Below are positions 28,601 to 32,237 of a stretch of DNA of 64,000 nucleotides, piece by piece (position 1 is the stretch's first letter; the number at the start of each line of letters is the position of its first letter). The translations under genes and the position numbers were made by a program. The notes below the pieces were generated by a model. It did not search any database. It saw nothing but the letters and a program-made list of their open reading frames with translations, and was not told the origin of the DNA. This stretch comes from Streptomyces roseifaciens (lineage in GTDB: Bacteria; Actinomycetota; Actinomycetes; Streptomycetales; Streptomycetaceae): assembly GCF_001445655.1 (NCBI RefSeq), contig NZ_LNBE01000005.1, forward strand, positions 1 to 64,000, in the 5' to 3' direction.

Positions 28601-29230
28601 ATGACACGGCGATGGGAGTACCCCCGGCCGGGCGCCGGGGAAGACCCTCCGGGACCGGACATGGACGACCGTACGGGCGGTGGCGCCCCCTCCCCGTCGA
28701 GGGCCGGGGACGACGGGGCACCGCCGCGGCCCGAGGAGCAGGCGCGGGCGATCTGCCTGCGCCTGCTCACCGGGACCCCGCGCACCCGCAAGCAGCTCGC
28801 GGACGCCCTGGCCAAGCGGGGAATCCCGGACGAGGTAGCCGAGGAGGTCCTCTCCCGCTTCGAGGGCGTGGGCCTGATCGACGACTCCGCGTTCGCCGGG
28901 GCCTGGGTCGAGTCCCGGCACCACGGCCGGGGCCTGGCCCGCCGGGCCCTGGCGCGCGAGCTGCGCACCAAGGGCGTGGACTCGGCCGTGATCGACGAGG
29001 CCGTGGGGCAGCTCGACGCCGAGCAGGAGGAGCGGACCGCTCGCGAGCTGGTCGAGCGCAAGCTCCGCGCCACCCGTGGGCTGGACCGCGAGAAGCGACT
29101 GCGCCGCCTCGCCGGGATGCTCGCCCGCAAGGGCTATTCCGAGGGCCTCGCCCTGCGCGTGGTGCGCCGCGCGCTGGAGGAGGAGGGCGAGGACCCGGAG
29201 CTGCTGGACCACTGCCTGCCGGACGTATAG
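28601..29230 (+). CDS. recX: Regulatory protein RecX
   Basis: RecX binds RecA filaments and limits RecA activity. The product is all-helical, with repeated three-helix modules (CLRLLTGTPRTRKQLADALAK, then AWVESRHHGRGLARRALARELR, then LVERKLRATRGLDREKRLRRL). The first forty residues are Pro/Gly/Asp-rich and poorly conserved. With ATG 28601 it is 209 residues; ATG 28661 would give 189, close to my memory of other Streptomyces RecX proteins, so the N-terminus is unsure. It starts three bases after the recA stop with little ribosome site of its own, which implies translational coupling. Confidence 0.9.
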   Translation: MTRRWEYPRPGAGEDPPGPDMDDRTGGGAPSPSRAGDDGAPPRPEEQARAICLRLLTGTPRTRKQLADALAKRGIPDEVAEEVLSRFEGVGLIDDSAFAGAWVESRHHGRGLARRALARELRTKGVDSAVIDEAVGQLDAEQEERTARELVERKLRATRGLDREKRLRRLAGMLARKGYSEGLALRVVRRALEEEGEDPELLDHCLPDV

Positions 29231-29272
29231 GCCCCGCGGCGGCGCCGCCCGCCGGGCGCCGTCACGCCGCCG

Positions 29273-29342
29273 CGGCGACCGTCACCTTGCGGCCACCGGT
29301 CACCTCCCGGCCACCGGTCACGTCCCGGTGACCGTCCCGTCC
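29273..29342 (+). repeat. 17/18-bp tandem repeats at convergent gene ends
   Basis: Two near-identical 18-bp units (29290-29307 and 29308-29325; CGGCCACCGGTCAC followed by CTCC or GTCC) are flanked by degenerate copies at 29273-29289 and 29326-29342. The array lies between recX and the rhodanese gene and encodes the last residues of the latter. Confidence 0.8.
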
Positions 29343-29716
29343 CCGGTGTCCACCGGCAGGCCCGCCGCGCGCCAGGCCTGGAAACCGCCCGCCAGGTCCG
29401 TGGCGCGGTGCAGGCCCAGCAGGCGCAGGGAGGCTGCGGCCAGGCTGGAGGCGTAGCCCTCGTTGCAGATCACGACCACCCTCAGATCGTGCCCGGTCGC
29501 CTCGGCGGCGCGGTGCTCGCACTGCGGGTCGAGCCGCCATTCCAGCTCGTTGCGCTCCACCACCAGAGCGCCGGGGACGAGCCCGTCGCGCTCCCGCAGC
29601 GCCGCGTACCGGATGTCCACCAGCAGCCCGCCCCCGGCCTGGGCGGCCGCGGTCTCGGCGGGGCCGAGCCGGTCCAGGCCCTCCCGGGCGGCCGCCAGGA
29701 GCTCCTCGACCCTCAC
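29318..29716 (-). CDS. Rhodanese-like sulfurtransferase domain protein
   Basis: A 132-residue single rhodanese domain, likely a thiosulfate or persulfide sulfurtransferase. The active-site loop is ICNEGYASSLAA with Cys84, and the family strand LLVDIRYAALRERDGLVPGA is present, as is the C-terminal LAGGFQAWRAAGLP. GTG 29716 overlaps the stop of the cysteine dioxygenase gene in the pattern GTGA, with GGAGGAG just upstream, so translation is coupled. Pairing with cysteine dioxygenase suggests a role in disposing of sulfur released from cysteine sulfinate. The 3' end runs into an 18-bp tandem repeat. Confidence 0.9.
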   Translation of the reverse strand: MRVEELLAAAREGLDRLGPAETAAAQAGGGLLVDIRYAALRERDGLVPGALVVERNELEWRLDPQCEHRAAEATGHDLRVVVICNEGYASSLAAASLRLLGLHRATDLAGGFQAWRAAGLPVDTGDGTVTGT

Positions 29717-30267
29717 GCCCACTCCTCCGGCCACTCGACCTGCTCCAGCCGCAGCACCTGCCCGCTGCGGCTGTACCGCCTCATCAGCGGCAGCGGCGGA
29801 TAGTACGCGTGCACGGACACCGCGTGCTGCTCCGCCGAAGCGTTGAACACCTGGTGCACGTGATGGGCTCCGAAGGCCCGGCCCTCTCCTTCGGAGAGCC
29901 GTCGCTCGCGGTCGATGCCGTCGGCCAGCTCCAGACTCCTCCAGCCGTCGGTGGGCATCCGGGCCGCGAGCGAGTGCTCGGTCAGCACGCCGCCGGCGGT
30001 GGCGAACGCGCCGTGCGAACCGCCGTGGTCGTGCCAGCCGGTGCCGGTGCCGGGCGGCCAGCCGATCAGCCAGGCCTCGCTGTCACCCGGGCCGTTCAGC
30101 CGCATCCAGGTGCGGCCCCGGGGATCCAACGGGAGGGAGGAGACCAGTTGTGCGTCGGCGGCCGCGCGCCGGGCGAAGGCGAGCAGGTCGGCCTCGGAGG
30201 GCGCGCCGGGGGAGCCGGGGGAGACCGTGGAGGAGCCGGGCACGGGCGTGGGCAGGGGAAGGAACAC
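29713..30267 (-). CDS. Cysteine dioxygenase family protein
   Basis: This cupin-fold iron enzyme (184 residues) oxidises cysteine to cysteine sulfinate. The metal-binding HxH is His79 and His81 (GTGWHDHGGSHG), the third His lies in the HHVHQVFN stretch, and the catalytic Tyr is in YYPPL. Where the mammalian enzyme has the cross-linked Cys, this protein has Gly (DHGGSHG), as in other bacterial enzymes. GTG 30267 has AGGA about nine bases upstream; the upstream in-frame extension to 30324 lies in the leader region. It is first in a coupled operon with the rhodanese gene and is preceded by a cysteine-rich leader ORF at 30352-30438, so expression is probably set by cysteine supply. Confidence 0.9.
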   Translation of the reverse strand: MFLPLPTPVPGSSTVSPGSPGAPSEADLLAFARRAAADAQLVSSLPLDPRGRTWMRLNGPGDSEAWLIGWPPGTGTGWHDHGGSHGAFATAGGVLTEHSLAARMPTDGWRSLELADGIDRERRLSEGEGRAFGAHHVHQVFNASAEQHAVSVHAYYPPLPLMRRYSRSGQVLRLEQVEWPEEWA

Positions 30268-30295
30268 GGGAACCGTCCTGAGTGATCGCGAAGGA

Positions 30296-30338
30296 GCGCG
30301 CGGCGGCCGGCGCACAGAGCGCACACGCAGGCCGCGCG
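30296..30338 (-). promoter_or_regulatory. GC-rich self-complementary leader segment, possible attenuator
   Basis: Between the leader-peptide stop and the dioxygenase start, the minus-strand RNA can pair GCGCGGCC (30337-30330) with a GGCC/GCGC stretch (30308-30296) across a 3-base bulge. This could be a terminator or a ribosome-site-masking hairpin that responds to ribosome stalling on the cysteine codons. This is inferred by eye, not folded. Confidence 0.35.
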
Positions 30339-30351
30339 GAGGGAATGCGGA

Positions 30352-30438
30352 TCAGCAGGACGGACGACAGACGCAGCCCGCGTAGCGGACCAGGTCCAGA
30401 TGGACCCTCCGCCAGAAGTGCGCGCCGGTGTCAGTCAC
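30352..30438 (-). CDS. Cysteine-rich leader peptide of the cysteine dioxygenase operon
   Basis: A 28-codon ORF starts with GTG at 30438 (MTDTGAHFWRRVHLDLVRY) and ends YAGCVCRPSC, putting three Cys codons (TGC, TGT, TGC) in the last seven sense codons. It stops 84 bases before the cysteine dioxygenase start on the same strand. The GTG lies 7 bases after a -10-like element with no room for a ribosome site, so it is probably leaderless. Polycysteine leader ORFs acting as cysteine-responsive attenuators are known in mycobacteria. This one has the same layout in front of a cysteine-degrading enzyme. Confidence 0.75.
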   Translation of the reverse strand: MTDTGAHFWRRVHLDLVRYAGCVCRPSC

Positions 30439-30445
30439 GGTCCGT

Positions 30446-30474
30446 AGTCAACCATGGCGTTCGGTGCAGGTCAA
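30446..30474 (-). promoter_or_regulatory. Promoter for the leader peptide-dioxygenase operon
   Basis: On the minus strand TTGACC (30474-30469) is a good -35 box. A 17-base spacer leads to TTGACT (30451-30446) as a weak -10, and the GTG of the leader ORF begins 7 bases further on, where transcription would start. The -35 overlaps the stop codon of the upstream FAD monooxygenase gene. Confidence 0.55.
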
Positions 30475-32237
30475 CGGTTGGCTGTGGCTTCGCTGGGGGC
30501 TTCCGACGGCGGCTGCGCGCTCCCCGCGCCCGCGCCGTCCCCGGAGGCCGTGCCCGCGGCGCTCGGCCCCGCACCCGCCGCCGCGGCCCCGTCGGAGCCC
30601 TTCCGGCCCCTGCCCGCAGGCTCTGCGCCGCCGGCCGTACCGCCCCGTACGGCGTCCGCGCACGCGTACAGCTCCGCAGGCCGCACCCCGGCGAGCGCCG
30701 CGACCAGGTGCCCGTCCGGGCGCACCACCAGCACCGTGTGGGCCGGAGCGCCCGGGTACTCGTCGGTGACCAGCAGCTCGGCGCGCATGGGCAGGGCGCT
30801 GACGGCGGCCGCCAGCTGCGGCATGAGCCCGGCGTCCGCCCAGTGCCGCCGCTCCCACACCCCGCTGCCCGGCGCCGTAAGGATCACCAGGAGGTCGCCG
30901 CCGAGCCGGTCCCGCAGTGGCACGAGGGTGCCGTCCGGTGCCGTCACCCGGACGTTCTCCGCCTGGGCCCCCAGCGGGGTGTCCACGGTGACGGAGCCGG
31001 CGGGCGGTGCGGCCGGTGCCAGGGGCGTACGGGCGTACGAGGGGGGCGTGCCGAGCTGCCCGCGCCCGAGGTGGCCATCGGTGAGCAGCTCGTCGTGCCC
31101 GCGCAGGGCGCCCGGCACCAGCGTGCGGCGCACGCTGCTCCACCCTCCCTCGCCGCGCACCGCCGGCAGCGCCCGGTCGGCGGCGCGCAGCCGGTCCCCG
31201 ATCGCCCCGCGCCGCTCGGCCTGGTAGCTGTCGAGCAGGGCCTCCGAGGTGCCGTGGTGCCAGGCCAGGGCCAGCTTCCAGGCGAGGTTCCCGGCGTCGC
31301 GCAGCCCCTCGTCGAGGCCCTGGGTGCCGAGCGCGCCCAGCAGGTGCGCGGCGTCCCCGGCGAGGAAGGCGCGGCCGGTGCGCATCCGGCGCGTGAGGCG
31401 GTGGTGCACGAGGTGCACGCCGGTGTCCAGGAGCTCGTACGACGGGACGTCCTCGCACCAGGTGGCCAGCGAGTCGCGCACCCGGGCCAGGAGTGCGTCG
31501 GGCGTGACGAGTTCACCGCCGGGCGGCAGCGGCCAGTCGAGCCGCCACACGCCGTCCGGCAGGGGACGGGCCGTCACCTCCCCGCCCCGTGCGGGCGACC
31601 GGTGCAGCACGGCCTCGCCGGGCCACGGCAGCTCGGCCCGGAGCGCGGCGACCGCGTACCGCTCGACGGCGGTGCGCCCGGGGAAGCGCGCGCCCAGCAG
31701 CTTGCGCACGGTCGACCGGGCGCCGTCGCAGCCGACCAGGTAACTGCCCCGCCAGGCGGAGCTCTTGTCGCCGCGGAGGTGGGCGGAGATCCCGAAGGCG
31801 TCCTGCCGCAGGTTCTCCAGGCGGCCCCCGCGGACGATCCGTACCTTCTCCTCCGAGACGAGGGCGGCCTTCAGCTCCCGCGTCAGCGCGTGCTGCGGCA
31901 GGTGCAGCGGCGAGGGGCCGGCTGCCACCGAACCCTCGGCCGCATCGGCTTCCGCGGATTCCCCGGGGCGCGTGAACGCCAGCCGGCCGACGACCGCGCG
32001 GCGGCGCATGGTGCGCCAGCCCGTCCAGCGGGTGCCGTCCTCCGTGGCGCACCCCAGCCGCTCCACCATGGCCGCGGTGTCCGGGCCGAGCACGACCGTC
32101 CGGGACAGGCGCTCCTCGTCCGGCGCGGGGCCGTCGGAGGCCTCGTCGAGGAGGACGACGCGCACCTCGTGGCGGGCGAGGCAGAGGGCGAGCATGAGGC
32201 CGACCGGGCCGGCCCCGACGACGATCACCGGGTCCAC
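30471..32237 (-). CDS. FAD-dependent aromatic-ring hydroxylase-type monooxygenase
   Basis: A 588-residue flavoprotein of the p-hydroxybenzoate hydroxylase family. The FAD-binding GAGPVG lies at residues 8-13. The DG motif (LVGCDGARSTVRKLLG) and the GD motif with FAD ribose contact (FLAGDAAHLLGALGTQGLDEGLRDAGNLAWKL) follow. A C-terminal thioredoxin-like domain spans about 395-525, as in phenol hydroxylase and polyketide hydroxylases, and a Gly/Ala/Ser-rich low-complexity tail of about 55 residues ends the protein. GTG 32237 is preceded by GGGGAG. The substrate cannot be told from sequence. No polyketide genes are nearby, so a catabolic or housekeeping role is as likely as tailoring. A large opposite-strand ORF here is a shadow. 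Confidence 0.85.
   Translation of the reverse strand: MDPVIVVGAGPVGLMLALCLARHEVRVVLLDEASDGPAPDEERLSRTVVLGPDTAAMVERLGCATEDGTRWTGWRTMRRRAVVGRLAFTRPGESAEADAAEGSVAAGPSPLHLPQHALTRELKAALVSEEKVRIVRGGRLENLRQDAFGISAHLRGDKSSAWRGSYLVGCDGARSTVRKLLGARFPGRTAVERYAVAALRAELPWPGEAVLHRSPARGGEVTARPLPDGVWRLDWPLPPGGELVTPDALLARVRDSLATWCEDVPSYELLDTGVHLVHHRLTRRMRTGRAFLAGDAAHLLGALGTQGLDEGLRDAGNLAWKLALAWHHGTSEALLDSYQAERRGAIGDRLRAADRALPAVRGEGGWSSVRRTLVPGALRGHDELLTDGHLGRGQLGTPPSYARTPLAPAAPPAGSVTVDTPLGAQAENVRVTAPDGTLVPLRDRLGGDLLVILTAPGSGVWERRHWADAGLMPQLAAAVSALPMRAELLVTDEYPGAPAHTVLVVRPDGHLVAALAGVRPAELYACADAVRGGTAGGAEPAGRGRKGSDGAAAAGAGPSAAGTASGDGAGAGSAQPPSEAPSEATANR

What the first reader, a model, noticed from the sequence alone, without database searches (positions are those of the whole stretch)
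30267..30474. Leaderless cysteine-rich leader peptide likely controls a cysteine dioxygenase-rhodanese operon
Seen: TTGACC, 17-base spacer, TTGACT, then GTG 7 bases on, opening a 28-codon ORF that ends GCVCRPSC just before a GC-rich self-complementary segment and the dioxygenase start. Known: mycobacterial polycysteine leader ORFs act as cysteine-responsive attenuators. Inference: stalling or smooth passage of the ribosome over the terminal Cys codons sets expression of an enzyme that destroys cysteine. The regulated product is catabolic, so the sign of the response should be opposite to a biosynthetic attenuator.
Basis: partly seen in the sequence, partly recalled or inferred. Interest (0 to 1): 0.75.

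Follow-up and report, generated by a model that had tools for sequence, protein, structure and literature searches.

The report
Cysteine leader peptide controlling cysteine dioxygenase
A tiny, highly conserved cysteine-containing reading frame sits in front of a Streptomyces enzyme that breaks down cysteine, and its RNA seems to hide that enzyme's ribosome-binding site, so that cysteine supply can switch the enzyme, probably in the same direction as the cysteine-making genes.

Summary
The leader ORF is real and strongly conserved. At window 30438-30352 (-) a 28-codon ORF (VTDTGAHFWRRVHLDLVRYAGCVCRPSC) begins 7 bases after a promoter-like pair (TTGACC-17-TTGACT) and ends 84 bases before cysteine dioxygenase (CDO). 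It passes the NCBIfam cut-off for 'putative leader peptide' NF042934. Of 130 same-genus CDO upstream regions, 129 have usable sequence and 127 the leader. New here: codons Pro-Ser-Cys (CCGUCCUG) are perfectly complementary to the CDO ribosome-binding site (CAGGACGG), in 167 of 220 aligned loci. Folding pairs them in 111 of 123, and a modelled ribosome loosens the site, modestly, only past Cys22. Covariation is weak, and one clade lacks the pairing. Best reading: a cysteine-responsive translational attenuator, a new member of a known actinobacterial kind with an unusual target. No expression data for this locus itself were available.

The parts
30469..30474 (-). -35 box TTGACC (overlaps the stop codon of the upstream FAD-monooxygenase ORF 32363-30471)
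   Evidence: first T in 98% of 126 loci, TTGACC the consensus
30446..30451 (-). -10 box TTGACT (consensus in relatives TGTACT), 17-base spacer
30352..30438 (-). 28-aa leader ORF, inferred leaderless, GTG start, TGA stop; Cys22 30375-30373, Cys24 30369-30367, Cys28 30357-30355
   Evidence: NF042934 32.3 bits, cut-off 27; codon table of 126 loci
30383..30414 (-). P2 hairpin inside the leader (codons Trp9 to Tyr19)
   Evidence: fold of window and of the relatives printed
30366..30436 (-). P1: early leader codons paired with the Cys22-Val-Cys24 codons, enclosing P2
   Evidence: fold prediction only
30356..30363 (-). arm CCGUCCUG (codons Pro26-Ser27-Cys28), complementary to the CDO ribosome-binding site
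30297..30338 (-). GC-rich apical hairpin between arm and ribosome-binding site; varies in relatives
30273..30280 (-). CDO ribosome-binding site CAGGACGG, sequestered in the predicted fold
29713..30267 (-). cysteine dioxygenase, GTG start at 30267
   Evidence: PF05995 1.6e-43; the 11 PDB hits are all cysteine dioxygenases
29318..29734 (-). rhodanese-domain protein overlapping the end of CDO (longest ORF; start not settled)
   Evidence: PF00581 7.5e-13

Best explanation
The leader is a cysteine-responsive attenuator of CDO-rhodanese translation. Shown from sequence: promoter boxes placed so that transcription would start at the GTG of a cysteine leader ORF, and complementarity between its last three sense codons (CCG UCC UG) and the CDO ribosome-binding site, kept in most Streptomyces loci examined. 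Inferred: with no ribosome near the leader's end, CCGUCCUG pairs with CAGGACGG and CDO is shut. A ribosome slowed at Cys24 or Cys28 (low Cys-tRNA), or briefly during termination, covers the arm and loosens the site. A ribosome waiting at Cys22 stops 12 nt short of the arm and leaves it shut, so Cys22 damps the response. Net prediction: CDO rises when charged Cys-tRNA falls, in the same direction as the sulfur-assimilation genes, with a capped response; loss of translation may also lower the mRNA by Rho polarity.
For: NF042934 above cut-off. Leader in 127 of 129. Cys22/Cys24 kept more than Cys28. Lower synonymous variation than in a CDO segment: 0.44 (16 codons) against 0.79 bits (28 codons), one-sided p 0.0095, 96 related loci, with rare codons held (Cys24 TGT 96/96; His13 CAT 82/96, while the two CDO histidines are CAC 95/96 and 96/96). 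Ribosome-binding site paired P 0.95, with the arm 0.84; over 0.5 in 111 of 123, against 80 of 369 arm-shuffled controls. 8-bp helix in the window reached by 15 of 2000 shuffled tails. Ribosome walk, 25 loci chosen by me: mean site openness 0.01-0.04 up to Cys22, 0.22-0.26 from Cys24 on (+12 footprint). Queue model with assumed rates: open 0.27 replete to 0.67 starved. SCO5772 8-fold up with cysteine-biosynthesis genes in S. coelicolor under H2O2.
Against: Covariation is weak: on 25 distinct arm/site combinations native pairing is no better than permuted (1558 of 5000); most arm changes break a pair; the one clear double change (U-A to C-G, L160, L167, L171) is in a single genus. One clade lacks the pairing and shows little or no effect of ribosome position (7 loci, two identical). 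Opening is modest even when the arm is covered (mean at most 0.26; window 0.09-0.24), and with a +14 footprint Cys22 already opens partly (0.12). Five of six other cysteine leaders of this genome show no arm beyond chance. In the RNA-seq the effect was absent in the hbpS-senS-senR mutant, its authors credit SenR, and the rhodanese neighbour SCO5771 is not mentioned (0 occurrences). On feather medium a Streptomyces cdo1 rose 50-fold (ortholog not identified). No translation data.
Confidence: 0.5

Rival explanations
1. Opposite sign: smooth passage (or a cysteine-induced arrest at the UGA, as in TnaC of the tryptophanase operon, recalled) keeps a ribosome at the leader's end when cysteine is plentiful, opening the site or feeding reinitiation, so CDO is made when cysteine is in excess.
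For: Physiological logic of a catabolic enzyme; the peptide is conserved beyond the Cys codons, as an arrest peptide would be (Trp9 and UGA 126 of 126); a ribosome at the stop also loosens the site in the model (0.26); cdo1 up 50-fold on feather medium.
Against: SCO5772 and SCO3035 rise with cysteine-biosynthesis genes under H2O2; waits at Cys24/Cys28 open the site; the core R-x-H-x-D-L-x-R is shared with the leader of a sulfite/nitrite reductase gene.
Confidence: 0.22
2. Transcriptional attenuation: stalled or absent ribosomes change Rho access in the leader-CDO spacer; the RNA helix is secondary.
For: The published effect is at mRNA level; Rho-dependent attenuation was proposed, weakly, for mycobacterial cys leaders (PMC1262725, passages); no intrinsic terminator found in 29200-30700.
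Against: The conserved arm/ribosome-binding-site complementarity needs no Rho; Rho sites were not tested here.
Confidence: 0.18
3. The conserved leader only boosts CDO expression by reinitiation, or works through its RNA fold, without sensing cysteine.
For: Reinitiation at leader genes is proposed for Actinobacteria, at short distances (PMC4833913, passages); RNA-level conservation.
Against: 84 nt from stop to start is long for reinitiation; Cys22 and Cys24 are near-invariant; distant CDO relatives also have Cys-containing leaders, some of quite different sequence (7 of 11 loci).
Confidence: 0.07

Closest known systems
NCBIfam NF042934 cis_reg_atten ('putative leader peptide')
   Same: Core R-x-H-x-D-L-x-R followed by Cys; 32.3 bits against a cut-off of 27
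   Different: Adds Trp before the core and GCVCRPSC after it; target is a cysteine-degrading enzyme
Mycobacterial polycysteine leaderless ORFs (Ms5788A type; Canestrari 2020, seen only through passages of PMC13236596 and PMC9031893; the paper itself not held)
   Same: Leaderless cysteine uORF; translation attenuation in which pairing of uORF with downstream sequence hides the ribosome-binding site
   Different: Cys codons spaced (C-V-C-x3-C), not a run; below the NF042933 cut-off (20.2 of 45 bits); target CDO
TnaC leader of the E. coli tryptophanase operon (recalled, no call)
   Same: Leader for a catabolic operon, conserved Trp and Asp, UGA stop
   Different: Spacing differs and no arrest was tested
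S. lividans 'metL' leader before metNIQ (PMC8079986, passages)
   Same: Leaderless leader with a Cys-rich tail, RCMCRRMC
   Different: Assigned there to methionine; lacks the H-x-D-L core

Membership tests
NF042934 cis_reg_atten | score over the curated cut-off | tested here: met
   32.3 bits, cut-off 27, residues 7-24
NF042934 cis_reg_atten | short ORF upstream of a sulfur-metabolism gene (recalled as typical, not part of the model) | tested here: met
   84 nt before CDO; other own-genome members precede a sulfite/nitrite reductase, a rhodanese, a flavin reductase and a 2OG oxygenase, the last two not clearly sulfur genes
NF042933 Ms5788A leader | score over the curated cut-off | tested here: not met
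   20.2 bits, cut-off 45
Cysteine-responsive leaderless translational attenuator | leaderless transcript starting at the uORF start codon | tested here: inconclusive
   conserved promoter spacing; no 5'-end mapping
Cysteine-responsive leaderless translational attenuator | conserved Cys codons near the uORF end | tested here: met
   125, 126 and 113 of 126
Cysteine-responsive leaderless translational attenuator | downstream ribosome-binding site hidden by pairing with the uORF | tested here: inconclusive
   111 of 123 predicted, but weak covariation and absent in one clade
Cysteine-responsive leaderless translational attenuator | expression responds to cysteine through the Cys codons | not testable with these tools
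   only indirect RNA-seq of another species
trp-type transcription attenuator | intrinsic terminator between leader and gene | tested here: not met
   0 terminator-like sites in 29200-30700
TnaC-like arrest peptide | ligand-induced arrest at the stop codon | not testable with these tools
   needs toeprinting

The most novel reading that the evidence does not exclude
Streptomyces CDO-rhodanese is not a cysteine-overflow valve but part of the cysteine-starvation regulon: two distantly related CDO genes of this genome each carry a cysteine leader, and the leader at this one uses an early 'gate' Cys codon, just short of the arm that hides the ribosome-binding site, to cap induction. The enzyme would then serve sulfur recycling (thiol to sulfinate to sulfite or thiosulfate) during thiol loss.
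Probability: 0.25. Interest if true: 0.7.

Novelty: new member of a known kind. Interest (0 to 1): 0.5.

Why it matters
If right, a cysteine-destroying enzyme is under the same starvation-type leader control as cysteine synthesis across Streptomyces, a paradox that makes the role of bacterial CDO directly testable. It also offers a single rule (Cys-codon position relative to the arm) that could set the sign and strength of an attenuator.

Tried and rejected
Considered and dropped: (1) classical terminator attenuation, 0 terminator-like sites; (2) a known structured RNA, only a chance miRNA hit at E 0.48 on the other strand; (3) a general rule that the cysteine leaders of this genome hide the next ribosome-binding site by the same kind of arm: of six others tested (the second CDO's included) five give helices no better than shuffled tails (584 or more of 2000) and L007 is borderline at 124 of 2000; (4) strong covariation support for the arm helix, not obtained on distinct combinations; (5) an internal start at ATG with GGAGG ahead of it, dropped because the window and the loci of other genera printed have CTG, TTG or (outside the family) GTC there.

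Papers: Canestrari 2020 could not be read; its mechanism is taken from passages of papers that cite it. Seven searches for a published cysteine leader at a Streptomyces CDO showed none in the titles and abstract starts listed; some searches listed only 20 to 25 of 43 to 1,157 papers, so this is no proof of absence. Passages were read of PMC8079986, PMC1262725, PMC13236596, PMC4833913, PMC9031893, PMC3087709, PMC7181669, PMC6637917, PMC4633059; of PMC4991794 passages plus section 20, part 1. Other listed papers were not opened.

Full report
Setting. The window lies in a Streptomyces genome (G000:C5; nearest named CDO S. hiroshimensis JCM 4586, 97% identity). recA and recX (named from ORF translations and position) lie on the + strand; on the - strand are a FAD monooxygenase, the leader, CDO (PF05995) and a rhodanese-domain protein whose ORF overlaps the end of CDO. 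The order fits S. coelicolor recA SCO5769, recX SCO5770 and SCO5772 ('putative cysteine dioxygenase'); this orthology rests on order and name, not on an alignment made here.

Observation. Of 150 same-genus genomes, 147 have a CDO-like match. I took upstream regions for 130 (30 loci, 100 stretches); G130 was left out because its contig ends there, and the genomes whose best match was a distant relative were not in this set. A motif asking for H-x-D-L and a Cys within the next residues finds the leader in 126 of 130; a looser look adds L293. Of the other three, L038 is a contig end, L150 looks like a broken or fused gene start, and L151, the most distant CDO of the set (54% identity), has no leader that I could see. 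Of the 80 named loci, 77 have it (of the three others, L271 has no upstream DNA). Of 22 loci from other genera of the family, 18 have it, on the same strand and upstream of CDO, 130 to 611 nt from its motif. Outside the family, 3 of 11 loci (L193, L194, L196) have a leader of the same core before CDO (two of the 11 lie close to a contig end); among 6 further ones (L294-L299) none has that core (a Cys-ending ORF about 500 nt upstream in L299 was not followed). In L194 a rhodanese-domain gene follows CDO too (PF00581).

Leaderless start. For the 126 loci I took as start the nearest ATG, GTG or TTG at least 9 codons before His13; the 'TG' is thus by construction. What is informative: it falls 12 codons before His13 in 118 of 126, at one distance from a TTGACC box and a T-N-T-A-C-T box with a 17-base spacer in the column consensus, and is ATG (37%) or GTG (63%), never TTG (L147 has no DNA for the boxes). 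No GGAGG-like site precedes it in the rows printed. This is what a leaderless mRNA would look like; it is not a 5'-end measurement.

Peptide and RNA. In the 126 loci Trp9, Arg10, Val12, Arg18, Tyr19, Cys24 and a UGA stop are 126 of 126; His13, Asp15 and Leu16 too, but these were part of the search motif; Cys22 is 125 and Cys28 only 113 of 126. The motif hides little: of the four loci it missed, one (L293) has the leader with Phe in place of Leu16. Synonymous variation at conserved codons is lower in the leader (16 codons) than in a conserved CDO segment (28 codons) of the same 96 loci (0.44 against 0.79 bits; one-sided p 0.0095), and rare codons are held; the loci are related, so the p-value is a guide only. 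So selection seems to act on peptide and RNA. Folding predicts a hairpin within codons 9-19 (P2), a helix P1 that covers the Cys22-Val-Cys24 codons, and a helix P3 between CCGUCCUG (codons 26-28) and CAGGACGG, the CDO ribosome-binding site. The longest helix between leader end and site has 8 or more contiguous pairs in 90 of 126 loci, and the 8 pairs of P3 are perfect in 167 of 220 of the wider set (16 of 236 could not be aligned and were left out; the 236 hold 225 distinct sequences).

Limits of the helix. Both arms are nearly invariant, so covariation is scarce. Permuting sites among all 220 rows reached the native score in 1 of 5000, but on the 25 distinct combinations in 1558 of 5000, so relatedness may explain the first result. 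L160, L167 and L171, one other genus, show a double change U-A to C-G; several Streptomyces change the arm without compensation. In one clade (L157, L158, L161, L162, L166; L176 and L278 also tested, L278 identical to L158) the pairing is absent and ribosome position has little or no modelled effect.

Mechanism and sign. When a ribosome footprint is walked along the leader (25 loci chosen by me from 126; +12 nt from the A site), the ribosome-binding site stays shut up to Cys22 (mean openness 0.01-0.04), starts to open at codon 23 (0.13) and stays at 0.22-0.26 from Cys24 to the stop; with +14 the change comes one codon earlier. So opening is partial in the model. A queue model with assumed rates gives 27% open time when cysteine is replete and 67% when starved for the wild-type codon pattern at the middle initiation rate (11% and 50% replete at the lower and higher rates, 67% starved at all three); Cys22 alone would invert the sign, Cys24 alone would reach 99%. 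Published RNA-seq of S. coelicolor with H2O2 lists SCO5772 8.0-fold and SCO3035 6.5-fold up together with the SCO6097-SCO6102 cysteine cluster (9- to 19-fold), cysA, cysM and metN (Table 1 of PMC4991794); the rhodanese neighbour SCO5771 is not mentioned. SCO3035 as a second CDO is recalled. In this genome, likely counterparts of several of these carry cysteine leaders: sulfite/nitrite reductase and rhodanese-type sulfurtransferase, second CDO, metN; none was seen before the Prok-JAB/CysM-like locus (L300). The authors credit the SenR system, and the effect was lost in their mutant; thiol loss acting through the leaders is my alternative. Against it stands the 50-fold rise of a cdo1 on feather medium.

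Verdict. A real and conserved cysteine leader for CDO-rhodanese; a new member of a known kind. The shape of the switch (arm in the last codons, gate codon ahead of it) is a specific, testable proposal.

Noticed in passing
L280 352-472 (G000:C4, upstream of the second CDO at 3211602): The second, about 40% identical CDO of this genome (PF05995) also has a polycysteine leader (MPVNAALSLTRDYGSRCAVQARCRCSSC); 7 of 11 loci of distant CDO relatives (L280-L290) have a Cys-containing leader, four polycysteine and three of the H-V-D-L type.
   Followed up: partly
L301 155-506 (G000:C4, upstream of metN): The leader before metN ends GAARCMCRMCDR; its S. lividans counterpart was assigned to methionine in PMC8079986 but looks like a cysteine leader.
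   Followed up: partly
L157, L158, L162, L166: In this clade the predicted fold pairs the very 5' end of the leader mRNA with a segment after the leader stop (GUGAACG with CGUUCAC; in L166 GUGAAGG with CCUUCAC, a change on both sides): a different long-range helix.
   Followed up: partly
window 30397-30410: The leader contains GGAGG 6 nt before codon 14, which is ATG in 107 of 126 Streptomyces (CTG in the window): a possible second, internal start in many relatives.
   Followed up: no
L006, L007, L009, L010, L011: Other leaders of the family in this genome precede a sulfite/nitrite reductase, a flavin reductase, a 2OG-Fe(II) oxygenase, a rhodanese and a dicarboxylate-type symporter (the last leader below the cut-off).
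   Followed up: partly
L194 1950-2423: The rhodanese after CDO in another family has LDAEGTTSS where the window's protein has CNEGYASS, so its active-site Cys may be lost (by eye).
   Followed up: no
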